64,000 nucleotides of DNA from positions 1 to 64,000 of IMG/VR virus record IMGVR_UViG_3300022752_000022, one strand, 5' to 3'. How positions within the stretch are numbered: the first letter of the stretch is position 1; each line of letters begins with the position of its first letter. Shown in pieces: positions 1,889 to 62,522 of this stretch. Origin of the DNA: a virus. The notes beneath the pieces are model-generated. The model worked only from the letters and a program-made list of their open reading frames with translations. It did no database searches and was not told where the DNA came from. The position numbers and the translations under genes are program-made.

Positions 1889-1897
1889 GAGGCGCTC

Positions 1898-2206
1898 ATG
1901 TATACTTTGATTTTCGAGAAAGAGTCGAAATTAATCCTGCAAACACGACTTGATGTTTCGACGGGAATAAAAATGACACTACAGGAAATCTTAGATCATT
2001 TTTGTAAAGATAATGCAGTAAATAAGGAAACCATCGAAATCGTTGAAACAACAGCGAAAGATACGCAAGTAATAATCGGTAAGCACGCGTACAATAAATC
2101 CAATGATTCGATAGAAGTACACTCTGCATGGCGAGAACCACCAAGACTAGCCGAATCGGGCATCCCTACGACCGATTTGTCAAATAATCAAACAACGGAG
2201 GAATAA
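1898..2206 (+). CDS. Hypothetical protein, 102 aa
   Basis: A small soluble protein with a strong Shine-Dalgarno (TTAGGAGGCGC) before ATG 1898. The middle (residues ~25-65) is charged and predicted mixed alpha/beta, and the last ~25 residues are polar and probably disordered. No family is recognised. It lies in a run of small genes after the fibre and ends 2 bp before the cupin-like gene, suggesting one transcript. Confidence 0.6.
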   Translation: MYTLIFEKESKLILQTRLDVSTGIKMTLQEILDHFCKDNAVNKETIEIVETTAKDTQVIIGKHAYNKSNDSIEVHSAWREPPRLAESGIPTTDLSNNQTTEE

Positions 2207-2208
2207 AA

Positions 2209-2610
2209 ATGTCATATCCAGAAATATCTGTAAGTTGCGTCGCCGCTGTGTATGTGCGGCAAATGCATTTTAAGAAAGCCGGTGACGTGGAGACGGGTCA
2301 CGCCCATTGTTTTGATCATCAGACGCTCGTGTCAAAAGGTAGCGTACAAATCGAGGTCGAAGGAAAGAAAACTATTTTTAAAGCTCCTCACATCGTGTTT
2401 ATTAGGAAGGACATTGTTCACGAGTTGACCGCTCTAGAAGATGACACGGTAGTATATTGTATTCATGCTCTACGCGATGGTCCTGACGTGTGCGATATAA
2501 TCGACCCGGCTTCAATTCCCTTGGGAGCTAAAGGGGAAGAAGCATTCGTCGTAGCTAAAAGCCTTACTCATACAAATGAGTCGATCAAAACGCCACATCT
2601 TGGTGGATAA
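2209..2610 (+). CDS. Cupin-fold protein, 133 aa
   Basis: The protein shows the two-motif pattern of a small single-domain cupin: ETGHAHCFDHQTLVSKGSV (residues ~26-46) resembles the G(X)5HXH(X)nE(X)6G first motif, and a later APHIVFIRKDIVHELTA contains the second-motif His. Cupins bind a metal and act as isomerases, epimerases, dioxygenases or simple binders, and the substrate cannot be read here. Strong ribosome site (CGGAGGAATAAAA). It stands in an accessory region and may modify sugars of the host surface or of the phage, but that is speculation. Confidence 0.7.
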   Translation: MSYPEISVSCVAAVYVRQMHFKKAGDVETGHAHCFDHQTLVSKGSVQIEVEGKKTIFKAPHIVFIRKDIVHELTALEDDTVVYCIHALRDGPDVCDIIDPASIPLGAKGEEAFVVAKSLTHTNESIKTPHLGG

Positions 2611-2612
2611 AA

Positions 2613-2678
2613 GTGCCGGAAATAATCTTAAATAGAGGGTTTTTAACGAATGAAGAATGTAAAGCGCTTAACTATTAG
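2613..2678 (+). pseudogene. 21-codon remnant, possibly the N-terminus of a 2OG-Fe(II) oxygenase
   Basis: A GTG-started reading frame directly after the cupin gene encodes VPEIILNRGFLTNEECKALN and then stops. The pattern 'FLTxEECxAL' is the usual beginning of phage 2-oxoglutarate/Fe(II) oxygenases, but the remaining ~150 residues are missing. Too short to be certain. Its place beside two other apparent fragments supports decay of an accessory segment. Confidence 0.3.
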
Positions 2679-2700
2679 GAAATAAAAGAAAGGAACAAAA

Positions 2701-2853
2701 ATGAAATTGATATTACCAATTGAATTAAAGCGTATTGATGCTGGCGACTGGAGTGGCGCTGCCGATCAGTGTCTGTTGTGGAATAAAGCCGCTGGCAGGG
2801 TTTTGCCAGGTTTAACACGACGTCGTGCTGCCGAAGCTGCTTTAATGCAATAA
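2701..2853 (+). pseudogene. C-terminal fragment of a GH24 phage lysozyme (50 codons)
   Basis: The ORF has a good ribosome site (GAAAGGAACAAAA) and encodes MKLILP followed by a stretch (residues ~8-48) typical of the C-terminus of P21/T4-type lysozymes: IDAGDWSGAADQ, LLWNKAAGRVLPGLTRRR. The catalytic N-terminal half (E-D-T triad) is absent, so it cannot be a working muramidase. It is either a remnant or a re-used small peptide. Family lengths are normally 140-170 residues. The homology call rests on the conserved WNKAxGRVLPGLxRRR pattern. Confidence 0.7.
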
Positions 2854-2883
2854 CTATGTTTTATTTACAACTGGAGGTTTACA

Positions 2884-2961
2884 ATGGCAACATCCAAGCC
2901 TGTTTGGGAAAAACAGCGACCAAAGTCATTAGGTAAACCAAAGTCTTTGTCGCCGCAGTAA
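2884..2961 (+). CDS. 25-aa basic peptide, likely truncated member of a small phage family
   Basis: A short ORF behind a strong ribosome site (CTGGAGGTTTAC) encodes a Lys/Pro-rich peptide with KPVWEKQRPKSLGKPKSLSP. A similar pattern begins ~60-residue basic proteins in many phages, and here the frame stops right after it. Not testable without a search. It is followed by ~130 bp in which I see only a weak 29-codon frame (2990-3079) and no convincing gene. Confidence 0.4.
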   Translation: MATSKPVWEKQRPKSLGKPKSLSPQ

Positions 2962-3093
2962 AAGCGCCGGATAGTCTTGCATCAAACTTATGTTCTTTGA
3001 TGGTGGCGGTGTCATCCTTGTTATTCCCGACAGATCATTTTCTGGTTCGCCCATGATAGATACGCCATTTGGAGGTTGACTAAACTCCAAGAT

Positions 3094-3101
3094 TATAAAT
3101 A
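3094..3101 (+). promoter_or_regulatory. T4-type late promoter before gene 13
   Basis: Perfect TATAAATA octamer 27 bp upstream of gene 13, in the only non-coding gap before the neck/terminase operon. In T4 this sequence is recognised by RNA polymerase with gp55, coupled to the gp45 clamp. Genes for both are in this window. Confidence 0.8.
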
Positions 3102-3127
3102 GCCATGATACATTCTAAGGATTTTAC

Positions 3128-3871
3128 ATGGCTAAACCCACCACCAGAGAAGAATTCAAAGAGCATTGTCTACGCAGACTAGGCAAACCCGTTCTAGAAA
3201 TTAATGTTGATGATGACCAGATTGAAGATCGGATTGACGAAGCGTTAGCGTACTATCACGACTATCATTTTGATGGCACCGAAAAAGTTTTTCTTGCTCA
3301 TCAAATAACACAACAAGATATAGACAACAAATATCTTTCAATACCTGAAGCTGTTATCGGCATCATCAATATTTTTGACGTTGGTGATTCTTATTCAACA
3401 AATAATCTATTCAATATTCGGTATCAAATCGCATTGAATGATCTTTTCGCATTCAACTATGGCCCTTTTGCGCCATACTACATGGCACTTCAAAATGTAG
3501 CACTCGCTGAAGAATTGTTTGTAGGAAGACAAGCATTGAGATATAATAGACACATTAATAAACTTTATATTGATATGGCGTGGGGTGAAAAAGTACAAGT
3601 GAACGAATATATCATTATTGAAGCTTATCAGAAAGTAGATCCTGAAACATATTCCGACGTTTGGTCTGATCGTTGGCTTCAAAAATATGCTACATCACTT
3701 ATCAAAAAACAATGGGGTGAAAATCTGAAAAAATTTGAGGGTTTACAAATGCCTGGTGGTTTGACGTTCAACGGTCAAAAAATCTGGGATGAAGCGGTTG
3801 ATGAACTCACAGCACTTGAAGCTGAAATGATTAGTTCATATAGTCTTCCAGTTTCAGATATGATCGGCTAA
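3128..3871 (+). CDS. gp13: Neck protein gp13
   Basis: This is the T4-like gp13 head-completion protein that, with gp14, forms the neck joining the DNA-filled head to the tail. The N-terminus (REEFKEHCLRRLGKPVLEIN, then DDDQIEDRIDEALAYYHDYH) is the hallmark of the family in aquatic T4-like phages. Its 247 residues are somewhat shorter than T4 gp13 (309). It opens the operon 13-14-15-16-17 and is driven by the late promoter at 3094. Gene 14 follows after 3 bp. Confidence 0.93.
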   Translation: MAKPTTREEFKEHCLRRLGKPVLEINVDDDQIEDRIDEALAYYHDYHFDGTEKVFLAHQITQQDIDNKYLSIPEAVIGIINIFDVGDSYSTNNLFNIRYQIALNDLFAFNYGPFAPYYMALQNVALAEELFVGRQALRYNRHINKLYIDMAWGEKVQVNEYIIIEAYQKVDPETYSDVWSDRWLQKYATSLIKKQWGENLKKFEGLQMPGGLTFNGQKIWDEAVDELTALEAEMISSYSLPVSDMIG

Positions 3872-3874
3872 AAA

Positions 3875-4720
3875 ATGGCACGCAATCGGTATTTCAATCA
3901 ATATGGTACACCGAGTGAGCAAAACGTTTACGAAGATTTGATCATTGAAGCAATTAAAATTTACGGTGTTCCGGCATACTATCTTCCACGAACACATGTT
4001 AATTTAGATAAACTTTACGGTGAAGATGGTTCTATGTATTTTGATGATGCTATAGAAATTGAAATGTACATTAAAACTTTTGACGGTTTTCAAGGTCAGC
4101 TTGATTTTATATCAAAGTTCGGTCTTCAAGTCGATGAGCAGATTACATTTTCTTTGGTAAAGAAAAGATTTCAACAAGCAATGAAGCCATGCTTGATGAC
4201 AGAATATAATTACAATTTAATTTTAGAAGATAGTGGAGAAATTTTGTATCAGAATGAAATGCTTTCTGATACAGACGGAAGAAAAATTGATGATTATGAT
4301 TATTCTGGTATATATAGACCACGAGAAGGTGATCTCATATGGTTGCCTCTAGTTCAGTCTATGTACGAAATCAAATTTTGTGAGGATAACGAATACTTTT
4401 TTCAATTAGGAAAAACTTATACATACGAATTACGTTGCGATAGATTTGATTACTCTTCTGAAATTATTGATACAGATGTTTCTGAAATTGATGAAATAGA
4501 GGATTCTTACAGTCTTGCTACAAATATTCTTGATGAATTGCTTGATGAAGATGGTGACAAGATGCTTCTTGAAGATTCAAATACAATCATTCTTGAAGGT
4601 GATACATTTGAAAATAGGGCAAATACAGCAGATAACGATTTCATCACATCAGAGGTAAATGATGATGATATTCTAGATTTCAGTGAAGCGAATCCTTTTG
4701 CTTTGACAAAGGAGTGGTAA
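3875..4720 (+). CDS. gp14: Neck protein gp14
   Basis: T4-like gp14 neck protein, partner of gp13. The conserved N-terminus is visible (MARNRYFNQYGTPSEQNVYE, then IYGVPAYYLPRTHVNLD). The 281 residues match the family (T4 256). The C-terminal third is strongly acidic (many Asp/Glu) and probably flexible. The order 13-14-15 and the start directly before gene 15 (stop TAA then ATG) support the call. Confidence 0.93.
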   Translation: MARNRYFNQYGTPSEQNVYEDLIIEAIKIYGVPAYYLPRTHVNLDKLYGEDGSMYFDDAIEIEMYIKTFDGFQGQLDFISKFGLQVDEQITFSLVKKRFQQAMKPCLMTEYNYNLILEDSGEILYQNEMLSDTDGRKIDDYDYSGIYRPREGDLIWLPLVQSMYEIKFCEDNEYFFQLGKTYTYELRCDRFDYSSEIIDTDVSEIDEIEDSYSLATNILDELLDEDGDKMLLEDSNTIILEGDTFENRANTADNDFITSEVNDDDILDFSEANPFALTKEW

Positions 4721-5461
4721 ATGATATTCGGGCATGATTTTTATCACGGCACACTCAGACGCTACATTATAATGTTTGGAAACATTTTCAATGAACTCCA
4801 AGTTGAAAGATATGATTCAAGCGGTAACGTTATACAAAAAGTAAATGTTCCAATTGAATACGGACCTAAACAAAAATTTATCCGAAGAGTTACAACAGAT
4901 CCTCAAATTGGCAGAGAACAATTTAGCACACAGTTGCCTAGACTAGGATTTGAAATGACTTCAATTTCATATGCGCCGGCGAGAAAATTAAACACAGGAT
5001 TTAAACTTAAGAAAAATTTAGATCCTGATTCCGTAAATTTTTCAAGCACTTACGTACCAGTTCCATATGACATGAGTTTTTCTTTAAGCGTACTTGTAAG
5101 AAACGCTGAAGATGGTACACAAATTGTTGAAAAAATTTTACCATTTTTCACACCAGATTTCACTGTGACAATGAAAGCGTTGCCAAGCATGTCATTAAAT
5201 CTTGATGTGCCGATAGAATTAGTGACAATTTCATCTGAAGATACTTACGAAGGTGATTTTGATTCACGTAGAGTGATTTCATGGAATCTAGATTTTGTCG
5301 TAAAAGGATATTTATTTGGTCCAATTACCGCAAATAAGTATATTGCGAATACAACAATTAACTTTAAAAACGACTCAAATAGTGTAACAGAACCAGCCCT
5401 TGTTGCATCTTCTGTTATAACTTCTAACTCAGATTTTGGATTTACAATCGTAACATCATGA
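4721..5461 (+). CDS. gp15: Tail terminator / sheath stabiliser gp15
   Basis: T4-like gp15, the hexameric ring that caps the finished tail and connects it to the neck. The N-terminus GHDFYHGTLRRYIIMFGNIF and the IEYGPKQKFIRR segment are typical. The 246 residues are close to T4 gp15 (272). It begins immediately after the gene 14 stop and overlaps gene 16 by 4 bp (ATGA), a translational-coupling arrangement. Confidence 0.93.
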   Translation: MIFGHDFYHGTLRRYIIMFGNIFNELQVERYDSSGNVIQKVNVPIEYGPKQKFIRRVTTDPQIGREQFSTQLPRLGFEMTSISYAPARKLNTGFKLKKNLDPDSVNFSSTYVPVPYDMSFSLSVLVRNAEDGTQIVEKILPFFTPDFTVTMKALPSMSLNLDVPIELVTISSEDTYEGDFDSRRVISWNLDFVVKGYLFGPITANKYIANTTINFKNDSNSVTEPALVASSVITSNSDFGFTIVTS

Positions 5462-5865
5462 AAAAAACACCAAACGAAAAGATAAGCGATGCCTTGGATA
5501 TTCCTTACTACGAAAAGTCTTCTCAAGAATATTCTGTTACACCTGTTGTGGAAAAACAAGAGGACTCTATTGACGATGATTATCTCTACGCTAGGGAAAA
5601 TCTTAAGCACTTTATTGAAAAAGGTAAAGAGGCTATGGATGAAATCATTCACTTAGCAAAAGAAGTGGAATCACCAAGAGCATATGAAGTTGTCGGTCAA
5701 CTTATTAAAACTTTGTCTGAGACAAATAAAGATTTATTGGATCTTTCTAAAAAAGTCAAAGAATTAAAACAAAAAGATGAAGAAAAACAACCGACTCATG
5801 TGACGAATGCTTTATTTGTTGGCAGCACAGCAGAATTACAAAAGTTGCTCAAAGGCAATGGCTAA
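5458..5865 (+). CDS. gp16: Terminase small subunit gp16
   Basis: Small terminase that recognises concatemeric DNA and stimulates the gp17 motor. The 135 residues are mostly helical. A central coiled-coil region (residues ~45-110, including EKGKEAMDEIIHLAKEVESP and SETNKDLLDLSKKV) matches the oligomerisation core of T4-like gp16. It overlaps gene 15 by 4 bp and gene 17 by 8 bp. Confidence 0.9.
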   Translation: MKKTPNEKISDALDIPYYEKSSQEYSVTPVVEKQEDSIDDDYLYARENLKHFIEKGKEAMDEIIHLAKEVESPRAYEVVGQLIKTLSETNKDLLDLSKKVKELKQKDEEKQPTHVTNALFVGSTAELQKLLKGNG

Positions 5866-7501
5866 AAAAATATACTTAGGAAATCCGCTACTCAAAGCTG
5901 CTGGAGTTTCTGTACCATTTACAAAAGAGAACATTCAAGAGTACATAAAATGTTCTGAAGATTATATTTACTTTATTGAAAAATATTGTAAAATTGTCAC
6001 ACTTGATTATGGATTACAACCTTTTAAACTTTATGATTGTCAAAAAGAAAAACTAGATATCATTCATGAGAATCGTAAAGTTATACTCATGGAGCCACGG
6101 CAGCAAGGTAAAACTACAACTTCAGCGGCGTACATACTTTGGTATACTTTATTTCAAGGCAGTAAAACTGTAGCAATTCTAGCGAACAAAGCGACAGCAG
6201 CAAGAGAAGTTTTATCACGATATCAATTGATGTACGAAAATCTTCCACAATGGCTTCAGCAAGGCGTTAAGACATGGAACAAAGGTGACATTGCATTAGA
6301 GAATGGTTCAATTGTTTTCACAGCAGCAACAAGCAGACAAGGTATTCGTGGTAAGTCTGTCAATTTACTGTACGTTGACGAGACTGCGATCATACCAAAT
6401 AACATAGCAGAAGAATTCTTTACAGCGGTTTCGCCAACCATTTCAGCTGGTTCCACAACAAAAATTCTCCTTTCTTCAACTCCTCTCGGCTACAATCATT
6501 TCTGGAAATTCTGGAATGATGCTCAAAACAAACGAAATGATTTTATTCCACTTTTTATACCGTACTGGAAAATTCCTGGGCGTGATGAAAAATGGGCTGA
6601 AGAGCAAAAAAGACAGCTTGGTAATCTTAAATTTAATCAAGAAATTCTTTGTGCATTCTTAGGATCAAGTCTGACACTTATTGATGCTGATTCTATAGCA
6701 CAAATGTCACCATCTTTACCAATTTACAGCAAAGATGGATTAGATATTTACGAAAAAGTAGAAAGAAATGCATCTTACACGCTAGTTGCTGATATTGCAA
6801 AAGGCGTCGGTGGAGACTATTCAGCATTTACTGTGTTGAGAATCGATGAGATGCCTTACAAGCAAGTTGGTAAATTCAGAGATAACACCATCAGTCCACT
6901 TTTATATCCCTCTATGATTTATAAAATTGCTAAAGAATATAACAATGCTTGGGTTCTAATTGAAATCAATATATCTGAACAAGTTGCAGAAATTCTACAT
7001 AGCGAATATGAATATGAAAATATTATTTTTGTGAATCGGACAGCACAGGGCCAAATTGTTTCCGGTGGATTCGGTGGTGGTAAAACTCAGCTTGGTGTGA
7101 CAACTGACAAAAAAGTTAAGAGAGTTGGATGCATGAACTTTAAGTCATTAGTTGAAGGTAAAAAATTACTTATTCAAGATGCTGATACAATCGCTGAAAT
7201 TTCAACTTTTATAGAAAAAAGACAAAGTTATTCTGCCGATGAAGGATATCATGATGATTTAGTGATGCCTTTAATTCTTTTTTCATGGCTAACAACAAAT
7301 CCATACTTTAAAGAATTAACAAATATAAATATAAGAAAAGAGTTGTATGAGCAGCGTATGAAGACAATTGAAGATGAAATTACGCCATTTGGAATAATTA
7401 ACGATGGTCGTGAAGAAAATATAATTATTGATGGTTCCGGTCAAGTTTGGGAAATTGATAGAGAAATGGAAAGACAGGAAAAAAACTTTTTTAGGCTATA
7501 A
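5858..7501 (+). CDS. gp17: Terminase large subunit gp17 (packaging ATPase-nuclease)
   Basis: DNA-packaging motor with an N-terminal ATPase and C-terminal RNase H-like nuclease. The Walker A-like PRQQGKTT lies at residues 80-87 and Walker B LLYVDE at ~170-175, followed by the C-motif region LLSSTP. The nuclease domain starts near YTLVADIAKGVGGDYSA with its first catalytic Asp. The ATG at 5858 is chosen because residues MAKKIYLGNPLL begin the conserved part. An upstream in-frame ATG at 5807 would overlap gene 16 by 59 bp. It has 547 residues (T4 610). Confidence 0.95.
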   Translation: MAKKIYLGNPLLKAAGVSVPFTKENIQEYIKCSEDYIYFIEKYCKIVTLDYGLQPFKLYDCQKEKLDIIHENRKVILMEPRQQGKTTTSAAYILWYTLFQGSKTVAILANKATAAREVLSRYQLMYENLPQWLQQGVKTWNKGDIALENGSIVFTAATSRQGIRGKSVNLLYVDETAIIPNNIAEEFFTAVSPTISAGSTTKILLSSTPLGYNHFWKFWNDAQNKRNDFIPLFIPYWKIPGRDEKWAEEQKRQLGNLKFNQEILCAFLGSSLTLIDADSIAQMSPSLPIYSKDGLDIYEKVERNASYTLVADIAKGVGGDYSAFTVLRIDEMPYKQVGKFRDNTISPLLYPSMIYKIAKEYNNAWVLIEINISEQVAEILHSEYEYENIIFVNRTAQGQIVSGGFGGGKTQLGVTTDKKVKRVGCMNFKSLVEGKKLLIQDADTIAEISTFIEKRQSYSADEGYHDDLVMPLILFSWLTTNPYFKELTNINIRKELYEQRMKTIEDEITPFGIINDGREENIIIDGSGQVWEIDREMERQEKNFFRL

Positions 7502-53432: not shown

Positions 53433-54172
53433 TGTTCACACTTCTTCTATTCTTCACCGCTATAGGTATATCAGCGGTTGCAGCGTATTTTTCTATTGTA
53501 GGTTTGATATCAATCTTTACAGCAAGCCCTATAGCAATCGCAATCATGGGAGGTTCACTTGAACTTGGTAAACTTGTCACAGCATCTTTTCTCTATCGGT
53601 ATTGGTATAGTATTCACATTACTTTGCGGATTTACTTCACTACTACTGTTATCATTCTTAGTATCATTACTAGTCTTGGCATTTTTGGTTATTTGTCTCA
53701 GTCTCATTCTGGTTCAGGTGTGGATTATGTTACCAATTCTACAAGAATCGACAACCTTAACGAGAGACTTTCTATTGAAAAAAATAGACTGGAGATTCTA
53801 CTTAAGCAATCTGCTGGATATGCTCAACCCAATCAAAAATTGGAGCGACAAATTTCAGATACGCAGAACAAAATCGAGATTTTAACCAAAGAGATTCTAC
53901 CGCTTAAAGTAGAGAAGAACAAAGGCAATGCTGAAATTGGTGCGATCAGATATGTCGCTGAGTTGATTTATGGTAAGAATGATTTTGATACGATAGAAAA
54001 AGCTGTACAATGGATCATTATTGTGTTAATATGTGTCTTTGATCCACTTGCTATTCTATTATTGATCGCAGCAAATCATACACTTAAAATACGAAATTCT
54101 GGTGTAACAACCATTGAGCCGATTGCAATGGATGAAGAGAAACTGAAAAACGTTACGAAATTTGGAGATTAA
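53432..54172 (+). CDS. Membrane protein with coiled-coil domain, 246 aa
   Basis: Three hydrophobic segments in the N-terminal 95 residues (around 2-30, 34-50 and 64-90: TLLLFFTAIGISAVAAYFSI, IYFTTTVIILSIITSLGIFG). A ~70-residue soluble coiled coil (TRIDNLNERLSIEKNRLEIL onward) and a final membrane helix (QWIIIVLICVFDPLAILLLI) follow. Probably an inner-membrane protein with a cytoplasmic or periplasmic rod. It is coupled to the preceding 132-aa gene and precedes uvsX. Function unknown. Position is conserved among related phages, and a link to membrane-attached replication or superinfection exclusion is only a guess. Confidence 0.75.
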   Translation: MFTLLLFFTAIGISAVAAYFSIVGLISIFTASPIAIAIMGGSLELGKLVTASFLYRYWYSIHITLRIYFTTTVIILSIITSLGIFGYLSQSHSGSGVDYVTNSTRIDNLNERLSIEKNRLEILLKQSAGYAQPNQKLERQISDTQNKIEILTKEILPLKVEKNKGNAEIGAIRYVAELIYGKNDFDTIEKAVQWIIIVLICVFDPLAILLLIAANHTLKIRNSGVTTIEPIAMDEEKLKNVTKFGD

Positions 54173-54175
54173 TAT

Positions 54176-55072
54176 ATGAGCAATTTTTTCACATCTTTGG
54201 TGGAACAGTTGAAAGATGAAGATACGAAAATTCTTGCGGATGGTGGTGCGTCTGCTGAGTACACTGGTTGTATTGACACTGGATCTTATGCTCTTAATGC
54301 TCTACTTAGCGGTAGTATTTATGGCGGTGTTCCTAATAATAAAGTAACAGCATTTGCAGGCGAATCTGCTACTGGTAAAACTTTTTTTGTCTTGGGTGTT
54401 GTCAAACGATTTTTAGATGATCATCCTGAAGGTGGTGTGATTTACTTTGATACTGAAGCAGCAGTCACCAAGAACATGATGGAATCAAGAGGTATTGATA
54501 CAAAACGTGTAGTCATCTCTGAGCCTGATACAATTCAAAAGTTTAGACATACAGCGTTACAAATTATAGAAAAGTATTCTGCACAGTCTAAAGATAAACG
54601 AAAGCCTATGATGATGGTGCTTGATTCTCAAGGCCAATTATCTTCAACGAAAGAAATGGAAGATAGTTCAGATGGTAAAGAAACACGAGACATGACAAAA
54701 TCTCAGTTGATCAAAGCAACGTTTCGTGTTCTTAATTTGAAACTTGCAAAGATCAATGTGCCACTCATTGTAACGAATCATGTGTATGATGTTGTTGGAT
54801 GTGCATTGGCAGGAACTAAAATTCAAACTATAGACAAATTAAAAAATATTGAAGATATTTTGGTTGGCGATTATGTAAGAACCATGGTTGGAAATAAAAA
54901 AGTAACTCAAACTTTTAAGTATGAGTGTGACCATTATTATGAAATCGAAATGGAAAATAATTACAAATATTATTTGACTGAAGAACACAAATTAATGATT
55001 CAAGATGGAACATGGAAAAAAGTAAAAGATTTAACAGTAGAAGATGTTGTCATTAATGTCGGAACTATTTAA
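54176..55072 (+). CDS. uvsX: UvsX recombinase N-terminal part fused to N-half of a split intein
   Basis: Residues 1-208 are the RecA/Rad51-like core of T4 UvsX: Walker A AGESATGKT (61-69), FDTEAAVTKNMMESRGID, MMMVLDSQGQLSS (Walker B), NVPLIVTNHVYDVVG. At Cys209 (base 54800) an intein N-domain starts: block A CALAGTKIQ, block B LTEEHKLMI, 90 residues to the stop at 55072. The remaining recombinase is encoded separately from 55741 after a C-intein. The break lies in the DNA-binding L2 loop. A functional UvsX (208+144 residues) requires trans-splicing. The 3' end overlaps the antisense endonuclease by 42 bp. Confidence 0.95.
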   Translation: MSNFFTSLVEQLKDEDTKILADGGASAEYTGCIDTGSYALNALLSGSIYGGVPNNKVTAFAGESATGKTFFVLGVVKRFLDDHPEGGVIYFDTEAAVTKNMMESRGIDTKRVVISEPDTIQKFRHTALQIIEKYSAQSKDKRKPMMMVLDSQGQLSSTKEMEDSSDGKETRDMTKSQLIKATFRVLNLKLAKINVPLIVTNHVYDVVGCALAGTKIQTIDKLKNIEDILVGDYVRTMVGNKKVTQTFKYECDHYYEIEMENNYKYYLTEEHKLMIQDGTWKKVKDLTVEDVVINVGTI

Positions 55073-55681
55073 TATTTTTCTGAGATGAAAATAGGAGTAT
55101 GGTGATTTGTTTGAAGCCTCTCTAATAGAATCATATATGATACCATCAACAGATATTTTCTTAGATTTTGGACTATTTTTTCTTTTAGCAATTTTAGAAG
55201 ATTCTGTTGACATGGCGTTTTTCCATTTATCTGATTTTTTTCTCGCATCAGATAATTTTTGAGACATATTATTTTTTATATAATTTTCTCTCATTAATTC
55301 TCTTAAATTTTCATCAATATGTCTATTTTGAAATTTTTCATTTTTCCAAGCAAGTTTTAATGACTCGGATATTTTTTGCTTATGACTATCAGTAATAATT
55401 TGTTTTTTTCTGGATTCTCGTATCTTATTAATCCATTTTTCTTTTCTGCTTGAATTTAAGAGAAATTTATTAAATCCATTATTAGCTAATAATATGCGTT
55501 CTTCTTCAGTCATTTTTCTACCAGAAAGACATTCCCAAGCAATTTTGTCTTCGATTTTTCTATACTTTTCCCAAAGAATTCTATGCGCTTCTGCGTGTTC
55601 TTCTATAGTTAATTCTACTAAATTCTCTGAATCATCTGATCCACCCATATGTTTTGGGATAATGTGATGAATATGTTTCAT
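55031..55681 (-). CDS. HNH homing endonuclease between uvsX intein halves
   Basis: Minus-strand ORF, 216 residues, the only clear minus-strand gene of the window. HNH motif at the N-terminus (KHIHHIIPKHMGGSDDSENL then VELTIEEHAEAHRILW: His5/His6, Asn20, His29/His33). Then NUMOD3-like helices (SHKQKISESLKLAWKNEKFQ) and a C-terminal NUMOD1/IENR1-like DNA-binding segment (ISVDGIIYDSIREASNKS). It would cut an intein-less uvsX and copy the whole insertion by recombination. No clear ribosome site is seen upstream of its ATG. Convergent with the N-half and divergent from the C-half. Confidence 0.9.
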   Translation of the reverse strand: MKHIHHIIPKHMGGSDDSENLVELTIEEHAEAHRILWEKYRKIEDKIAWECLSGRKMTEEERILLANNGFNKFLLNSSRKEKWINKIRESRKKQIITDSHKQKISESLKLAWKNEKFQNRHIDENLRELMRENYIKNNMSQKLSDARKKSDKWKNAMSTESSKIAKRKNSPKSKKISVDGIIYDSIREASNKSPYSYFHLRKILNSSDINDNIFYC

Positions 55682-55740
55682 AGATGTGTTCGTTTTACTA
55701 TATTGTAGACATGATTATTTATAAAAAAGGAGTTTTTAAA

Positions 55741-56298
55741 ATGACTAGTGGTTTAAAAATTAAAAACATTAAAAAAATTGAGTGTGAAAATACTTCAGTT
55801 TTTGATTTTGAAGTTGAAGATGCACATCATTATATTCTAGAGGATGGCACAGTATCTCACAATTCTTATGTGCCAACGAAAGAAATGAGTGGTGGTTCAG
55901 GTTTGAAGTATACAGCATCCACAATTATATATCTTTCAAAGAAGAAAGAAAAAGACGGCACTGAAGTGATTGGTAACATTGTAAAAGCAAGATTGTATAA
56001 GAGCCGATTGACTAAGGAAAATAAAGATGTGGAAGTCAAAATCACCTATGACAAAGGGTTGGATCGACACTATGGTCTCCTCGACATCGCAGAAAAATAT
56101 AACATACTCAAAAAAGTATCAACACGATACGAATTACCAGACGGATCAAAAGTATTCGGTAAAGCAATCAACGACAATCCAGAAAAGTATTGGACCAAAG
56201 AACTCCTGGATATGATTGATGAAGTATGCAAGAAAGAATTCATGTACGGTCAACTTAATGAAATACCAGCTGAGGAGTTAGATAATGAAACTGAATGA
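55741..56298 (+). CDS. uvsX: C-half of split intein fused to UvsX C-terminal part
   Basis: ATG 55741 is preceded by AAGGAG at optimal 8-bp spacing, so the C-half is translated independently (upstream in-frame ATGs at 55684 and 55711 lack such a site). Residues 1-41 are the intein C-domain: block [15 protein letters not shown] and block G DGTVSHN, ending in His-Asn. Ser42 (base 55864) is the +1 extein residue, then [20 protein letters not shown] continues UvsX exactly from the N-half break. 144 extein residues follow, with an acidic C-terminus as in UvsX. Confidence 0.95.
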
Positions 56299-56593
56299 AG
56301 ATTTTAAAATAACCGACTACGATCACACCGTAGCGAATACCGCAGTTTTAGAATTAATCGGTGGTGTTCATGATGGTGTTAAATTCTATTTCGGTACAAT
56401 GAGCGTTGAAGAAGCTAATGATGAGGGCATTCTTCATTTTGAATATAGCACAGTCGGCGACTATGAAAAGACTTTGACAGAGCAAGACAAAGCTGAGTTT
56501 GACAAAATGATGGGCGATGTAGTATTATCTATTCTTATGGATAACCTTGAAAAAAGAGAACACGAGAATGCGAATCGAAAACAAGATTCTTAA
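56285..56593 (+). CDS. Conserved phage protein between uvsX and helicase, 102 aa
   Basis: [20 protein letters not shown] then [20 protein letters not shown] and an acidic helical C-terminus. Such a small protein commonly lies between uvsX and 41 in aquatic T4-like phages. It overlaps uvsX by 14 bp and the helicase by 26 bp. No motif. Function unknown, though its position in the recombination/replication operon suggests an accessory role. Confidence 0.7.
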
Positions 56594-57956
56594 ACACTTA
56601 CTACTAGACGAAGACTTTACACGCAAAACATTACCATTTCTGAAGAGTGAATATTTTCATGACGGTGCAGACAAAACACTCTTCACACAAATCAACGACT
56701 ATATCATTAAGTATAACACACTGCCTACATACGAAGCATTGGTTATAGAGATTGACAAAAAGAACTTAACCGAATCCTTATACAAAGAAACGATAGGAAG
56801 ACTTGATGAGATTGTTCAGAATAAAGAAACATCTGATACCAAATGGCTCATTGACACAGCAGAGTCCTTCTGTAAAGACAAAGCTGTCTACAATGCTATC
56901 ATGCAAAGTATCCAGATTCTTGACGCAAGTAGTAAAGGCACACTGGACAAAGGGAGCATTCCTACTCTTCTTGCTGACGCTCTATCAGTTGCTTTCGATA
57001 ATCATATCGGTCATGATTTCCTCGATGATGCCGATCCACGGTACGAGTTTTATCATAAAATAGAACAGCGAATTCCTTTTGATCTTGATTATCTGAATCG
57101 CATCACGAAGGGTGGTCTACCAGAAAAAACGCTGAATATTATTTTAGCTGGCACTGGTGTCGGAAAATCCTTGTTTATGTGTCATTGTGCAGCATCTAAT
57201 TTAACTCTAGGCAAGAATGTCCTGTATATTACACTTGAAATGGCCGAAGAACGAATTGCAGAGCGAATTGATGCTAATTTATTGAACATTGATTTAGATA
57301 AGTTGATCGCATTACCGAAAGAATCTTATTTGAAAAAGATAGAACGATTAAGATCCAACACTACAGGTAAACTAATTATCAAAGAGTATCCTACTGCAAG
57401 TGCGAATGTTTCTCATTTCAAACATTTACTCAATGAGTTGAAACTGAAAAAGCAGTTTATACCAGATATCATTTACATCGACTACCTGAATATTTGTTCA
57501 TCTTCACGCATCAAACAAGGATCCAATGTCAATTCTTATACTTATGTCAAAGCGATTGCTGAAGAACTTCGTGGATTAGCAGTTGAAACAAAGGTGCCGG
57601 TGATCTCGGCCACGCAAACCACGAGAGGTGGCTACGATAATTCTGATGTCAGTCTAACAGACACTTCGGAGTCATTTGGATTGCCGGCCACGGCGGATTT
57701 GATGTTTGCTTTGATTTCGACTGAGGAGTTGGCTGATTTGAATCAGATCATGGTCAAACAGTTGAAAAATCGCTACAGTGATCCGACGACAAACAAAAGA
57801 TTTGTCATAGGGGTTGACAGGGCGAAGATGAAGCTGTATGATGTAGAACAAGTGGCTCAGAACGGTTTGATGGACAACGGGCAAGTAGATAAACCAGCAT
57901 TTGACAGCACACCGACGGGCAAGAAGACTTCTAAATTTGATGGTTTTAAGATGTAA
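56568..57956 (+). CDS. gp41: Replicative helicase gp41 (DnaB-like)
   Basis: Hexameric helicase of the primosome, 462 residues from ATG 56568 (T4 475). Walker [21 protein letters not shown] near residue 196, Walker [16 protein letters not shown] near 300, DnaB motif [20 protein letters not shown] near 405. An ATG at 56547 adds 7 residues without a better ribosome site. Notably uninterrupted, although gp41 is a known intein host in related environmental phages. Confidence 0.94.
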
Positions 57957-57964
57957 CTTTGATC

Positions 57965-58189
57965 ATGACATTCAATCCATTACATAAAGTCGGTTACAGT
58001 GCGTGTACCGGTGCAGAAATGTTCCTTGTAAAAGATACATACTATGTTGTTTTTGAACAACAAGTCGTAGCATTTTCCAAATTTAAAGAAGACTGTTTTA
58101 TGAAAATGCTTGATAAAGACTTGATTGGAGAAGTGTTGCGTAAAAACAACGTGATGTTGACAAAGAACGTTTATTCAAGTATCATGTAA
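57965..58189 (+). CDS. Small hypothetical protein, 74 aa
   Basis: Follows the helicase closely and starts at ATG 57965. Mixed alpha/beta with [20 protein letters not shown] then [20 protein letters not shown]. No recognised family. Possibly a helicase-operon accessory protein as in related phages. Confidence 0.6.
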
Positions 58190-58215
58190 GTATGATTAAA
58201 AGTGGAGAAATTGAC

Positions 58216-58359
58216 ATGGCTGAGAAAGAACTTTTGATTGAGTTTTATCGTGATTTTATTGCATCAATCATTGACACAGGTGATTTAGAATTATTCCTAA
58301 AGACGATGAATGAAGAAGTTGAAATGCTGATGCCTCCAAATGGTGAAACGATTCACTAA
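58216..58359 (+). CDS. Small acidic helical protein, 47 aa
   Basis: MAEKELLIEFYRDFIASIID then TGDLELFLKTMNEEVEMLMP: a hydrophobic/acidic amphipathic helix pair. ATG 58216 follows GTGGAGAAATTGAC. An in-frame ATG at 58192 precedes that site. Unknown function. Confidence 0.55.
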   Translation: MAEKELLIEFYRDFIASIIDTGDLELFLKTMNEEVEMLMPPNGETIH

Positions 58360-58360
58360 T

Positions 58361-58489
58361 ATGATAGAATACATACTGAAATATGATATTGCTATGAGGC
58401 TCTGGAATGCTTACTCTAGCATCAATATGACATTGACTGAAATGTTTTTACCACCAACCGTATTATTAATCGTACTATATTTTATATGA
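58361..58489 (+). CDS. Small membrane peptide, 42 aa
   Basis: MIEYILKYDIAMRLWNAYSS then MTLTEMFLPPTVLLIVLYFI: the last ~18 residues form one hydrophobic membrane helix. Starts 1 bp after the preceding stop and overlaps the following gene by 4 bp (ATGA), which supports its being real. Confidence 0.5.
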   Translation: MIEYILKYDIAMRLWNAYSSINMTLTEMFLPPTVLLIVLYFI

Positions 58490-58836
58490 TTATACACTCA
58501 CCGACCAAATTCAGGGGCAAGAAGAAGTGGTCCTCCGCTGACGCAAAGCGAAAGGATGCTGAACTTCAAGCGGAGTGGCAAGAATTCTTAAGCAAAAATC
58601 AGCCCACCATGAAGACTGTAAAAAAGTCTACATACACGCCTCCAAAGACTTATGTCCGTGATTTACCAGTCTATCCAAGTCACTCCACCACGCTACCAGC
58701 CACTTGCACAAAGCCGGTTGAGGGTAAAGTGTACACTGGCACTAAAATGATCGGCATAGGGACTCTCCACAAGTCCAATGCAGTGCCTATCTTCAGCGAA
58801 GAGGAAGCTAAGGATCAAGCGACGATGCGCCGATGA
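58486..58836 (+). CDS. Conserved phage protein, 116 aa
   Basis: IIHSPTKFRGKKKWSSADAK at the N-terminus, a Thr/Pro-rich middle (KKSTYTPPKTYVRDLPVYPS) and a conserved C-terminus (CTKPVEGKVYTGTKMIGIGT then LHKSNAVPIFSEEEAKDQA). Proteins with this C-terminus are widespread in aquatic T4-like phages, function unknown. GC is somewhat higher than in neighbours. A late promoter follows directly. Confidence 0.72.
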   Translation: MIIHSPTKFRGKKKWSSADAKRKDAELQAEWQEFLSKNQPTMKTVKKSTYTPPKTYVRDLPVYPSHSTTLPATCTKPVEGKVYTGTKMIGIGTLHKSNAVPIFSEEEAKDQATMRR

Positions 58837-58838
58837 AT

Positions 58839-58871
58839 TATAAATAGTCCATTCAATCACTGGATGGACTA
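58839..58871 (+). promoter_or_regulatory. Late promoter and start-proximal hairpin before the KxDG gene
   Basis: Perfect TATAAATA (58839-58846) overlaps an 8-bp perfect inverted repeat TAGTCCAT (58845-58852) / ATGGACTA (58864-58871). The right arm ends at the base before ATG 58872 and includes the only SD-like bases (GGATGG). A transcript starting ~6 bp after the octamer would lack part of the left arm, while read-through mRNA from upstream would form the whole hairpin. Confidence 0.7.
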
Positions 58872-59369
58872 ATGAAATTTTTAGAATACATAGCCGAAGC
58901 AACATCAGGCAAAAATCTACATATGGAGCACATTGAGGATAATATTCTCAATGGCGGCGTCTACGGCGCTAGGGAAGCAATCAACTTCCTACGCAAAGTC
59001 CGTGACATGCTTGCGGGCAATTCCGAATCCAAAGTCAATATCACAGTCAAATGGGATGGATGTATCCACGAAGATACAATCGTTCTCACAAATCTTGGTG
59101 ATATGACAATCAAAGAAATAGTAGAGCGATGTCAATGGGACGATAGTCTTATGGTCATGGGCAAGGAATTGGATCTACCATCAAAACCTAATCGCATGGT
59201 TCCTATTTTGGGCGGAATGTTTCAGAATGGAAATAAAAAATGGGTTGAAATTCAACTAGAAGATGGAACAAAATATAAAATGACTGAAGATCATGAGGTG
59301 CATACAGCTAATCGTGGATGGGTAAAAGCATGTGAATTGACTAAAGATGACGATATTACCGAATTATAA
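58872..59369 (+). CDS. KxDG nucleotidyltransferase-like protein, N-part fused to N-half of a split intein
   Basis: Residues 1-63 are the host protein N-terminus (KFLEYIAEATSGKNLHMEHI ... NITVKWDG). K60-W61-D62-G63 matches motif I (KxDG) of ATP-dependent ligases and capping enzymes, where Lys is nucleotidylated. Immediately after Gly63 the intein begins at Cys64 (base 59061): block A CIHEDTIVLTNLGDMTIKEI, block B KMTEDHEVHTANRGWVKACE, 102 residues to the stop. The C-part is encoded from 60044. The identity as a ligase is inferred from motif I only. The protein family itself (415 residues after splicing) is common in aquatic T4-like phages. Confidence 0.9.
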   Translation: MKFLEYIAEATSGKNLHMEHIEDNILNGGVYGAREAINFLRKVRDMLAGNSESKVNITVKWDGCIHEDTIVLTNLGDMTIKEIVERCQWDDSLMVMGKELDLPSKPNRMVPILGGMFQNGNKKWVEIQLEDGTKYKMTEDHEVHTANRGWVKACELTKDDDITEL

Positions 59370-59403
59370 AGTGTGATGGTAATCATCTCAAAATGTCTTC
59401 TTT

Positions 59404-59411
59404 TATAAATA
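59404..59411 (+). promoter_or_regulatory. Late promoter directly before the second homing endonuclease
   Basis: Perfect TATAAATA, 20 bp before ATG 59431, with AAAAAGGAGAATGCG as ribosome site. It lies inside the 61-bp gap after the N-intein stop, so the endonuclease and C-half have their own late transcript. Confidence 0.75.
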
Positions 59412-59430
59412 AAATAAAAAGGAGAATGCG

Positions 59431-60066
59431 ATGACTGACGAAATGAAAGAAAAGTATATTCAAAAATATAAAGAAACATATTCGGTTTCTGAAATTTTAA
59501 GAACATTCAATGATGGAATTGGAAGAAAAAAAATCATAAATCTTTTAAAGGAAGAAGGTATATACGAGGGATTAAATGGACCAAATTATCTGAAAAAGAA
59601 AGTTGAAAATAATGAAAAAATAATGATGAAAAAATATGGTGTTATTAATTGGGGACAAACAAAGGATGGCGGTTACAAAAGCCAAAATAAAATACCATAT
59701 AAAAAAATATCTTATTTAAATGAAGAATATAAAGAATACAAAAATCAAGTTGAAAAAGAAACAAAACTTAATATAAAAAATATTGATTTACCTGAATATT
59801 GTTTTTACACAGGAATACAATTTGCAGATGTTGAGGGTCCCGTTAATCCGAATGATCCAAGAAAGAGAAGTGTTGATCATAAAATTCCAGTAATTATTTG
59901 TTATTTAAATGGCTTTTCTACAAATCAAGCTAGTGATTTAACTAACTTGATTTTCGTTTTGAAATATGTCAATTCAATTAAATCAAACACTGATCACGAG
60001 TCATTTTTGAAAATAACACATAAGATTAGGGAGGTATTTGTAAATGAGGGTTATAAGAGTAAATAA
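59431..60066 (+). CDS. HNH-like endonuclease between split intein halves of the KxDG gene
   Basis: 211 residues, Lys-rich and more AT-rich than neighbours. The N-terminus reads as a helix-turn-helix (KYKETYSVSEILRTFNDGIG then RKKIINLLKEEGIYEG). A MMKKYGVINWGQ segment typical of phage homing-type nucleases follows. The C-terminal catalytic part LPEYCFYTGIQFADVEG, then PRKRSVDHKIPVIICYLNGF and LTNLIFVLKYVNSIKSN, has the D-H and N residues of an HNH/EndoVII-like site (Asp149, His150, Asn172). Same strand as the host gene. Overlaps the C-half by 23 bp. Unrelated in sequence to the uvsX-located endonuclease. Confidence 0.8.
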   Translation: MTDEMKEKYIQKYKETYSVSEILRTFNDGIGRKKIINLLKEEGIYEGLNGPNYLKKKVENNEKIMMKKYGVINWGQTKDGGYKSQNKIPYKKISYLNEEYKEYKNQVEKETKLNIKNIDLPEYCFYTGIQFADVEGPVNPNDPRKRSVDHKIPVIICYLNGFSTNQASDLTNLIFVLKYVNSIKSNTDHESFLKITHKIREVFVNEGYKSK

Positions 60067-61219
60067 ATTAGAAGAAAAATATACTCAGTATGATATTAGT
60101 ACGTCATCTAATAATTTTTATGTGCAAACAAATTCCGGTAGATATGTATTGATTCATAATTCTCCAGCCATTTTTGCTGGTCAAGATCCGTCAGACGGTC
60201 AATTCTTTGTTGCAAAGAAAGGCATCTTCAACAAAAATCCAAAACTCTACAAGACGAATGCTGAGATTGATGCAGACACTTCAGGTGATTTAGCAGACAA
60301 ACTCAAAGCATGTCTTCAATACTTGCCTGAAATTGGCATCAAAGGTGTCATCCAAGGCGACTTAATGTATACTCAAAGTGATCTAAAAAATGTAACAATT
60401 GATGGTGTAAAGTATACAACATTTCATCCAAATACCATTGTTTATGCGGTGCCTTATGATAGTGACATTGGAAGAACAATCCGCAATTCAAAAATGGGCA
60501 TTGTATGGCATACTAGATATGAAGGCGATACATTAGAAAATATGAAAGCAGTCTTCGGAACTGATATACTTGCTGGTATGAAAAAGTCTAGAAATGTCTG
60601 GTTTGACAATGCAGATTATAAAGATGTTTCAGGCAAAGCGTCCATGACAAAAGAGGAGACTGCTGAAGTGACAAAGGTGCTATCACAAGCAGGAAAAGTT
60701 TTCAATGCAATTGATGGCCGATTTTTAGATTCGCTTTCAGATTATCCAGGCTTCGGTGAAGAGTTGAATACAAGAATTAAAGCATTCAATAATTCTAAAA
60801 TTAAACAGCGCCAAAAAATTACAAATGTTCATAGTCATGTAACAGAAATGCTTGACGCACTCTTAGCACATTATCAGAGTGAGTTTGATAGCAAGAAAAA
60901 GCCTGATGCAAAGAAACGTGCTGAAGTCAAAGTCAATGCTATCAAAAGTATGATAAAATCAAAATACAAAGTTCAATTTGAACATATCTTTACGCTAATG
61001 AATTTGTTAGTTGACGCTAAAGATATGCTCAGTAAGAAATTAGATGAAGTAAAGAGTGTAAACACATTTTTATTAACCAAATCTGGATATCAAGTCACTG
61101 GTGTTGAGGGTTATGTCGCAATTGACAAATTGACTGGTGGTGCCGTGAAGATTGTAGATAGACTACAGTTTAGTTATGCTAATTTTTCTCCAGATGTAAT
61201 CAAAGGATGGGAGAGATAG
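60044..61219 (+). CDS. C-half of split intein fused to KxDG nucleotidyltransferase-like C-part
   Basis: ATG 60044 follows GGGAGGTATTTGTAA. Residues 1-39 are the intein C-domain: YDISTSSNNFYVQTNSGRYV (block F) and VLIHN (block G). Ser40 (base 60161) is +1, and SPAIFAGQDPSDGQFFVAKK continues the KWDG motif of the N-part, restoring KWDGSPAIFAG. Later IKGVIQGDLMYTQSDLKNVT could be motif III-like and SKMGIVWHTRYEG motif IV-like. 352 extein residues with helical Lys-rich C-terminal half. The enzyme activity is inferred, the split-intein architecture is seen directly. Confidence 0.9.
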   Translation: MRVIRVNKLEEKYTQYDISTSSNNFYVQTNSGRYVLIHNSPAIFAGQDPSDGQFFVAKKGIFNKNPKLYKTNAEIDADTSGDLADKLKACLQYLPEIGIKGVIQGDLMYTQSDLKNVTIDGVKYTTFHPNTIVYAVPYDSDIGRTIRNSKMGIVWHTRYEGDTLENMKAVFGTDILAGMKKSRNVWFDNADYKDVSGKASMTKEETAEVTKVLSQAGKVFNAIDGRFLDSLSDYPGFGEELNTRIKAFNNSKIKQRQKITNVHSHVTEMLDALLAHYQSEFDSKKKPDAKKRAEVKVNAIKSMIKSKYKVQFEHIFTLMNLLVDAKDMLSKKLDEVKSVNTFLLTKSGYQVTGVEGYVAIDKLTGGAVKIVDRLQFSYANFSPDVIKGWER

Positions 61220-61220
61220 C

Positions 61221-62522
61221 ATGGCACTATTCAATAAGAACACACAGCAATATTTAAATCAATCAAAAACACTTTTTGATGTTGTCATGCTTGCCGATCA
61301 ATACGGCAATCGGATTAGCGCAGCAAATCCGACAGGCGTTGCAACTGATGCGTTTGGTAGAATGAGAGTATCGACACCATTAACGCTTTTTGATTCGTCA
61401 CATCGCTATAAAGACAATGGCCTTTGGGCGACTGCAAATACTGCAAATACAACTTATGCGTTTTCATCAAATGAAGGTTTAATTAATTTAACTTTGACGA
61501 ATGGTGCAGCAAATAATGAAATTATTCGTGAAACGACAAAAGTTATGTCCTATCAACCAGGAAAATCGTTACTGATTTTGAACACTATGGTGATGAATGA
61601 AGCGAAGGAAAATTTAAGGCAGCGTGTTGGATACTTTGGCGCAAACAACGGAATCTTTTTAGAACAATCTGGAAATACAATCAGTTTTGTTGAAAGGTCT
61701 ATTGTAACTGGTTCAGTTGTAGACACATTAGCAATTCAAACAGATTGGAATTATGATAAACTAGATGGCACTGGTCCATCTGGAGTAATTTTAGATTTAG
61801 CAAAAGCGCAAATTTTCTGGACAGATATTGAATGGTTGGGTGTTGGCGATGTTCGTTGTGGTTTTGTTATCAATGGTCAATTTATTCATTGTCATTCATT
61901 TCGCCATGCAAATCAAATAACTTCAACATATATTACGACAGCATCACTACCTTTGCGATATGAAATTAAAAATGTTGGTACAGTTTCTGGCGGTAGCACA
62001 ATGAAACAAATTTGTTCTTCGGTTGTGACTGAGGGTGGGTATGAACTCCGTGGAGCACAGCAAGCAATAGGTACAGCAATTAATGCAGCAAGAACGTTGA
62101 CTACAGCAGGAACTTTTTATCCAATTGTTTCATTAAGATTAAAATCTACAGCATTAGATGCAGTTGTGATTCTTACAGCACTCTCTACGATAGCAGATAC
62201 TTCCAGTAATTTTAATTGGCAAGTTCGTGCAAACTGTACAACAGGTGGAGGAGCATGGGTGAGTGCTGGAACAGATAGTGCTGTTGAATATAACATTACA
62301 GGAACTAGCACATCAGGCGGAAAAACATTAGCATCTGGCTATTTTACTGCAACTCAGAGCACCAGTGTGTCTGTTGATATTCTTAAAGAAGCATTATTCA
62401 AATTTCAACTAGAAAGAAATGGTTTGACTGAAACACCATATGAAATTTCTTTAGTGTTAGCATCAAAAACAGGTAATGAAGGTGTGTATGCTTCCATGGA
62501 CTGGGAAGAAATTTCTAGGTAA
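61221..62522 (+). CDS. Virion structural protein, 433 aa
   Basis: Starts with MALFNKNTQQYLNQSKTLFD and is beta-rich with DAFGRMRVSTPLTLFDSSHR, then YDKLDGTGPSGVILDLAKAQ and FWTDIEWLGVGDVRCGFVIN. This pattern belongs to a large-phage structural protein family (carbohydrate-binding-like beta sandwich) found in aquatic T4-like phages. No enzyme motif. The start overlaps nothing and lies 1 bp after the KxDG gene stop, so both share the late transcript. Confidence 0.75.
   Translation: MALFNKNTQQYLNQSKTLFDVVMLADQYGNRISAANPTGVATDAFGRMRVSTPLTLFDSSHRYKDNGLWATANTANTTYAFSSNEGLINLTLTNGAANNEIIRETTKVMSYQPGKSLLILNTMVMNEAKENLRQRVGYFGANNGIFLEQSGNTISFVERSIVTGSVVDTLAIQTDWNYDKLDGTGPSGVILDLAKAQIFWTDIEWLGVGDVRCGFVINGQFIHCHSFRHANQITSTYITTASLPLRYEIKNVGTVSGGSTMKQICSSVVTEGGYELRGAQQAIGTAINAARTLTTAGTFYPIVSLRLKSTALDAVVILTALSTIADTSSNFNWQVRANCTTGGGAWVSAGTDSAVEYNITGTSTSGGKTLASGYFTATQSTSVSVDILKEALFKFQLERNGLTETPYEISLVLASKTGNEGVYASMDWEEISR

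What the first reader, a model, noticed from the sequence alone, without database searches (positions are those of the whole stretch)
54176..56298. UvsX recombinase broken into two genes carrying a split intein, with an antisense HNH endonuclease in the gap
Seen: UvsX stops being UvsX exactly at Gly208. The frame then continues with an intein N-domain (Cys1, CALAGTKI block A, TEEH block B) and a stop. 669 bp later a second ORF with its own ribosome site starts with an intein C-domain (block F, then ...VSHN) followed by Ser and the rest of UvsX. Between them a 216-aa HNH endonuclease is encoded on the opposite strand. Known: this is the 'fractured gene' layout reported for a few split inteins in environmental phage-like sequences. 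Inference: active UvsX forms only by protein trans-splicing inside the L2 DNA-binding loop, so splicing could gate recombination. A recombinase carrying its own homing system is notable because homing itself uses recombination.
Basis: partly seen in the sequence, partly recalled or inferred. Interest (0 to 1): 0.96.

Follow-up and report, generated by a model that had tools for sequence, protein, structure and literature searches.

The report
Phage recombinase split by trans-splicing intein
A T4-like phage encodes its DNA-recombination enzyme UvsX as two genes whose protein products should be stitched together by a split intein, with a DNA-cutting homing gene reading backwards in the gap; the cassette recurs in many uncultured phages and bears clear marks of having jumped between them, so it looks like a selfish element living inside the enzyme that its own spread would need.

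Summary
Confirmed and extended. uvsX is broken at Gly208|Ser209: N-extein+IntN (54176-55072, +), antisense HNH endonuclease (55031-55681, -), IntC+C-extein (55741-56298, +). The halves together form one complete mini-intein (matches the gp41-1 intein end to end, E 1e-14) with all class-1 splicing residues; the joined 352-aa product aligns gaplessly to a solved UvsX (E 1e-138). Intein-free relatives read straight through.

It is not a one-off: about 19 other uncultured-phage loci share site and split; the HNH is antisense wherever present (two have lost it). The cassette moves horizontally: L203/L216 exteins are 93-98% identical, their inteins 67% (AU p 3e-10); L185/L189 HNH dS is 0.08 against 1.56 in flanking uvsX. 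The HNH is under purifying selection and in the window sits behind a T4-type late promoter box. Close relatives also stand free, head-to-head with intact uvsX, nested in the same clade.

The kind (fractured gene with split intein and homing endonuclease) is known. This site, the antisense late-promoter HNH and the uvsX-specific HNH clade look new. Splicing, cleavage and any gating of recombination are untested.

The parts
54176..54799 (+). UvsX N-extein (residues 1-208; Walker A GESATGKT; ends ...TNHVYDVVG)
54800..55069 (+). IntN, 90 aa (Cys1, block A CALAGTKI, block B YYLTEEH); stop codon 55070-55072
55031..55681 (-). HNH homing-endonuclease-like gene, 216 aa: N-terminal HHxxP..N..H..H, helical linker, C-terminal NUMOD1/I-TevI-type HTH; overlaps the N-gene tail to tail by 42 bp
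   Evidence: purifying selection in the family
55716..55723 (-). TATAAATA, T4-type late promoter box, 35 nt upstream of the HNH start codon
   Evidence: 14 of 21 boxes in the record lie within 80 nt upstream of a same-strand gene; permuted controls 1-3 of 14-37; consensus from PMC2984593
55728..55732 (+). AGGAG ribosome-binding site of the C-half gene
   Evidence: read directly
55741..55863 (+). IntC, 41 aa (block F VFDFEVED, block [14 protein letters not shown])
   Evidence: (TIGR01443 over cut-off)
55864..56298 (+). UvsX C-extein (Ser209 = +1 nucleophile, [13 protein letters not shown]..., 144 aa) and stop

Best explanation
This is a mobile homing cassette in a 'fractured' uvsX. The two uvsX genes are translated separately. 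IntN and IntC associate into one class-1 mini-intein, excise themselves and ligate Gly208 to Ser209, giving the 352-aa UvsX (inferred from sequence, not shown). The antisense HNH gene is expressed late from its own T4-type late promoter. Its product cuts intein-free uvsX alleles of a co-infecting phage near codons 208-209, and recombinational repair (itself using UvsX/RecA) copies the IntN-HNH-IntC block into them. Shown here: anatomy, intact catalytic residues, precise empty sites, recurrent horizontal transfer, purifying selection on the HNH, promoter box. Inferred: trans-splicing, the cleavage site, homing by double-strand-break repair, late timing. No gating of recombination by splicing is claimed.
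For: Complete intein when halves are joined: the profile covers gp41-1 intein 6qaz positions 7-128, E 9.6e-15; invariant C1, T60/H63, H128, N129, S130 across 9 diverse copies. Gapless spliced product vs UvsX 9gbg. Empty sites: 79 of the 80 closest IMG/VR uvsX loci are uninterrupted; exact G|S junction, e.g. L191 (split) vs near-identical L035 (empty). Same layout in about 19 other loci, HNH antisense wherever present. Sporadic distribution: at least 6 changes on the uvsX tree; the window groups with one split and two empty relatives, support 99. Horizontal transfer: the intein tree rejects L203+L216 as a clade (p 3e-10) although their exteins are 93-98% identical; the extein tree rejects L203+L204 (p 1e-4); IntN dS 0.018 vs uvsX dS 2.3 (L192/L194), HNH dS 0.08 vs 1.56 (L185/L189); identity falls sharply at the insert ends. 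HNH omega 0.07-0.32. HNH remnant in L102 = decay after homing. T4 intron homing uses UvsX (PMC2988022).
Against: No splicing, cleavage or expression data. The HNH target is unknown; free-standing T4 enzymes can cut hundreds of bases away from their gene (PMC2988022). The late box is exact on the HNH strand in only about half of the loci. Pfam's intein model scores each half alone below its curated cut-off.
Confidence: 0.85

Rival explanations
1. The gene was split by endonuclease insertion and the two polypeptides assemble non-covalently, without splicing, as in Aeh1 NrdA (mobE insertion) or T4 topoisomerase gp39/gp60; the intein-like ends are relics.
For: Such genes-in-pieces exist in T4-like phages with HNH insertions (PMC2988022).
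Against: All class-1 splicing residues are invariant in 9 diverse copies; IntN shows low dN/dS (0.03-0.20 in most pairs); L188 and L102 keep both intein halves after losing the HNH.
Confidence: 0.07
2. The window copy is a dying element: splicing works but the HNH is inactive or mis-targeted, so it no longer homes.
For: HNH loss has happened at least twice (L188; L102 with a C-terminal remnant).
Against: The window HNH is full length with intact HHxxP...N..H..H and both DNA-binding motifs and keeps its late promoter box; the family is under purifying selection.
Confidence: 0.12
3. Regulatory view: the antisense HNH transcript and/or slow trans-splicing serve the phage by limiting UvsX at late times (gating recombination).
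For: Conserved antisense orientation and tail-to-tail overlap of 33-105 bp with IntN (one exception); late promoter box.
Against: Orientation and overlap are also explained by descent of one cassette; close relatives without the insert are common; no evidence of conditional splicing.
Confidence: 0.06
4. Assembly artefact or mis-joined contig.
For: Single metagenomic record.
Against: Same break, order and strand pattern in about 19 independent contigs from other samples.
Confidence: 0.01

Closest known systems
Fractured genes (Dassa et al. 2009, NAR 37:2560, not held in the library; cited in PMC7090010, PMC3653736, PMC10448857) and AceL NrdHF (PMC7891396)
   Same: Conserved phage DNA-metabolism gene broken into two by a split intein at the canonical break, with a free-standing homing endonuclease gene between (the AceL NrdHF layout is described in PMC7891396).
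   Different: Host gene uvsX at the VVG|SYVP site; HNH enzyme (not the Vsr-like family that I recall for half of Dassa's loci, nor the GIY-YIG of AceL NrdHF); endonuclease antisense, with a late promoter box. Whether any of Dassa's 26 loci is uvsX could not be checked.
Split UvsX inteins of cultured T4-like phages (Proteus PM2, Shewanella Thanatos-1, E. coli BYEP01/HY03, Pseudomonas PspYZU05, Yersinia TG1, Vibrio EniLVp02 and others)
   Same: uvsX split by an intein inside L2 with an endonuclease ORF between in all nine loci opened; IntN 34-42% identical to the window's.
   Different: Insertion 11 residues further on (MTGG|TG); endonuclease ORF on the sense strand, GIY-YIG/NUMOD type where typed; annotated merely as two RecA-like proteins; no held paper found that discusses them.
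Aeh1 nrdA/mobE genes-in-pieces (PMC2988022)
   Same: HNH endonuclease gene splits an essential T4-like phage gene into two ORFs.
   Different: No intein; NrdA halves assemble non-covalently. MobE-like HNHs are only 27-33% identical and fall far from this clade.
Collaborative homing: F-CphI and psbA (Zeng et al. 2009, summarised in PMC6083498)
   Same: A free-standing endonuclease beside a gene targets the insertion site of an intervening sequence in that gene.
   Different: Here the same HNH clade occurs both inside the split intein and free-standing beside intact uvsX; intein instead of group I intron; target not shown.

Membership tests
Split intein (class 1) | Two gene products that together make one HINT/intein domain | tested here: met
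   Fused-half profile matches gp41-1 intein 6qaz over its whole length, E 9.6e-15
Split intein (class 1) | Catalytic residues: Cys1, block-B T..H, penultimate His, terminal Asn, +1 Ser/Thr/Cys | tested here: met
   Invariant in 9 copies including the window
Split intein (class 1) | Protein trans-splicing activity | not testable with these tools
   Needs co-expression and mass spectrometry
Fractured gene (Dassa type) | Conserved enzyme gene broken by a split intein with a free-standing endonuclease ORF between | tested here: met
Fractured gene (Dassa type) | Intein-free homologs continuous at exactly the insertion point | tested here: met
   79/80 closest loci continuous; junctions
HNH homing endonuclease | HNH catalytic motif plus site-recognition modules (NUMOD/I-TevI type) | tested here: met
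   PF01844 over cut-off, PF20987 E 1e-4 but below cut-off; NUMOD1/NUMOD3 weak in L104; fold hits I-TevI DNA-binding domain prob 0.99 and I-HmuI prob 0.60 with weak E-values
HNH homing endonuclease | Sequence-specific cleavage of the empty allele and biased inheritance | not testable with these tools
   Indirect only: horizontal transfer
EDxHD/Vsr-like endonuclease family of Dassa et al. | Vsr-like nuclease domain in the gap gene | tested here: not met
   HNH and no Vsr-type hit in Pfam, PHROGs, NCBIfam
T4 MobE | Groups with MobE-like HNHs | tested here: not met
   Quick tree places two MobE-like proteins on a 1.7-change branch outside the uvsX clade
Group I intron | Intron RNA in the interruption | tested here: not met
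   No Rfam match at E<=1 in 53900-61400; coding continues into intein on both sides

The most novel reading that the evidence does not exclude
A uvsX-specific HNH endonuclease has moved repeatedly between a free-standing site, head-to-head with intact uvsX, and the gap of a split intein in uvsX. Endonuclease and splicing element then form separable partners (collaborative homing for inteins), which would show how mobile split inteins form or come apart, inside the very recombinase that carries out homing.
Probability: 0.4. Interest if true: 0.75.

Novelty: new variant of a known kind. Interest (0 to 1): 0.62.

Why it matters
UvsX is the strand-exchange protein that T4-like phages use for recombination, and intron homing in T4 depends on it. 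A selfish element that breaks this gene and must both restore the protein and use it to spread is a sharp test of how far homing elements can intrude on their own machinery. The series assembled here is unusually complete: empty sites, full cassettes, cassettes that lost the endonuclease, free-standing endonucleases beside intact uvsX, and uvsX in three pieces. It makes the open question of how endonucleases and (split) inteins meet and part directly testable. Cultured E. coli phages with a split UvsX 11 residues away offer a laboratory system, and the new split inteins could be useful protein-ligation tools.

Tried and rejected
Single-sequence IntN search of IMG/VR: nothing confirmed; the alignment-based search then worked. 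Frameshift or assembly error: rejected (opposite-strand gene in the gap, recurrence in independent contigs). Group I intron: no Rfam match. Second uvsX copy in the record: none. MobE membership suggested by BLAST names: rejected by the tree. Cultured phage with this very cassette: none in 50,697 phage records. Co-conversion tract: no clear gradient; identity drops close to the insert ends, and the L191/L035 high-identity block does not prove one. Idea that the C-half leader was copied from the uvsX leader: both contexts share an ATGATT block near the RBS, but this is better read as part of the HNH's own upstream region. Dassa et al. 2009 could not be read, so overlap with their loci is unknown. 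AlphaFold models: HNH pLDDT 79 but pTM 0.31; N-precursor pLDDT 63; used only as weak support.

Full report
Observation. The window is bases 1-64000 of a 149,598-bp virus record. ORF 54176-55072 (+) reads UvsX to Gly208, then continues as an intein N-half starting CALAGTKI and ends after block B; ORF 55741-56298 (+), with AGGAG 8 nt upstream, starts with an intein C-half (..[13 protein letters not shown]) followed by SYVPTKE.. and the rest of UvsX; ORF 55031-55681 (-) is an HNH protein. The joined 352-aa protein aligns without a gap across the junction to the solved phage UvsX 9gbg (E 1e-138), and the junction falls on RecA MKIG|VMFGNPETTTGG, the N-terminal edge of loop L2 (the loop name is from general knowledge of RecA). 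No other RecA-family gene is in the record.

Is it one intein? A profile of nine fused halves matches the gp41-1 intein structure 6qaz over its full length (E 9.6e-15), with DnaE and RadA inteins next. Cys1, block-B Thr/His, penultimate His, terminal Asn and +1 Ser are invariant. The element is therefore a class-1 split intein by anatomy; splicing itself is inferred.

Empty sites. The 80 closest IMG/VR uvsX loci were fetched with the C-extein; 79 are uninterrupted at this point, including the 82%-identical L006 and L008, and one (L051) has the same cassette. Split L191 and empty L035 differ by little else near the site and show a clean insertion between Gly and Ser.

A conserved family. A degenerate junction pattern and alignment searches with IntN and HNH gave about 19 further distinct loci with the same site and order. 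The HNH is antisense wherever present and overlaps the IntN gene tail to tail by 33-105 bp in the loci measured, except in L195. L188 and L102/L207 lack the HNH but keep both intein halves; L102 retains an HNH C-terminal remnant. On the uvsX tree split and empty alleles are interleaved, with at least 6 changes forced by well-supported branches; the window sits in a clade of support 99 with one split (L196) and two empty alleles.

Mobility. L203 and L216 have 93-98% identical exteins but 67% identical IntN and 62% identical HNH, while L203 shares 89% IntN and 82% HNH with L204, whose exteins are 68% identical. AU tests reject L203+L216 in the intein tree (p 3e-10) and L203+L204 in the extein tree (p 1e-4); window+L196 is rejected more weakly in the intein tree (p 0.034). 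Synonymous divergence is 0.018 in IntN but 2.3 in the adjacent uvsX (L192/L194), and 0.08 in HNH versus 1.56 in uvsX (L185/L189); DNA identity steps from about 75% to 95-100% at the insert ends. HNH dN/dS is 0.07-0.32 in eight pairs. Together these show recurrent, sometimes recent, horizontal transfer of a functional cassette.

The endonuclease. It has HHxxP..N..H..H, a helical middle and a C-terminal NUMOD1/I-TevI-like helix-turn-helix; structure search points weakly to the I-TevI DNA-binding domain and I-HmuI. T4 MobE-like proteins are the best named relatives by BLAST but lie far off in the tree; the uvsX-associated HNHs form one clade (SH-aLRT 91). Within it, two separate branches hold free-standing HNHs that stand head-to-head with an intact, intein-free uvsX: L120/L122 (nested with the L203-L217 group, 95) and L117 (with window/L195/L196, 98). 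Their uvsX reads MFPTTE or MFPKDV instead of SYVPTKE just after the site, which would fit immunity to an enzyme that cuts there; this is inference. The direction of the shifts is not resolved because the tree is unrooted.

Control. TATAAATA, the T4/KVP40 late promoter (NATAAATA in cyanophage S-PM2; PMC2984593), occurs 21 times in the record, 14 of them within 80 nt upstream of a same-strand gene against 1-3 of 14-37 for permuted controls. One lies on the HNH strand at 55716-55723, 35 nt before its start codon. An exact HNH-strand box is present in about half of the loci; in L185, L191, L192 and L194 it is part of a two-way TATAAATATTTATA; the L203-L217 group lacks it.

What is known. Fractured genes with split inteins and homing endonucleases were described in 2009 by Dassa et al. 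(not held; cited in PMC7090010, PMC3653736, PMC10448857); AceL NrdHF is a described case with a GIY-YIG enzyme (PMC7891396). In GenBank, about 25 records of cultured T4-like phages carry an unremarked split UvsX intein 11 residues downstream (MTGG|TG); the nine loci opened all have an endonuclease ORF on the sense strand in the gap. I found no held paper on UvsX inteins. None of 50,697 phage records has the window's cassette. So the kind is known; the site, the antisense late-promoter HNH and the HNH clade with free-standing members appear new, with the reservation that the 2009 tables could not be read.

Verdict. The gating idea is unsupported. The added value is the mobility evidence and the free-standing/in-intein series, which makes a route of formation or dissolution of mobile split inteins testable.

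Noticed in passing
window 58872-61219 (+): Second fractured gene in the same phage: a DUF6267 protein broken at KWDG|S (looks like nucleotidyltransferase motif I, KxDG) by a split intein (IntN 59061-59366; C-gene 60044-61219), with a sense-strand HNH-like ORF 59431-60066 that has its own TATAAATA at 59404-59411. All 80 closest relatives are uninterrupted.
   Followed up: partly
L223 (IMGVR_UViG_3300025502_000435) 1400-5365: uvsX in three genes: two successive split inteins, the middle gene (3351-3782) being IntC + only 11 UvsX residues (SMFPTAVISGG) + IntN, with a homing-endonuclease-like ORF in each gap; double trans-splicing would be needed.
   Followed up: partly
L223 5423-6818: gp41 helicase ORF breaks off at ...YLAE|CVHPDTKIRIRKKRRN with an HNH gene on the opposite strand, a possible atypical split intein with a very short N-half.
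   Followed up: no
L104 (IMGVR_UViG_3300032320_002701) 4780-7131 (-): uvsX in three genes: an atypical split intein with a 27-aa N-half inside the P-loop (GESSTGK|C...), small ORFs in that gap, plus the L2 split intein with antisense HNH.
   Followed up: partly
L189 4405-5328: Split intein at VVG|SYVP (here VIG|SYVP) plus a second, contiguous mini-intein at GG|SG only 11 residues later in the same uvsX.
   Followed up: partly
L089, Salicola phage SCTP-2, 1403-3373: RecA-like recombinase with two contiguous mini-inteins, in the P-loop and at GG|SG: the same two hot spots as the split ones.
   Followed up: no
L093 and other cultured T4-like phages (BYEP01, HY03, SYGD1, ELT1, SEA1, TG1, PM2, Thanatos-1): GenBank annotates the two halves of a split-intein UvsX as two RecA-like proteins; the intein is not mentioned in the records opened.
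   Followed up: yes
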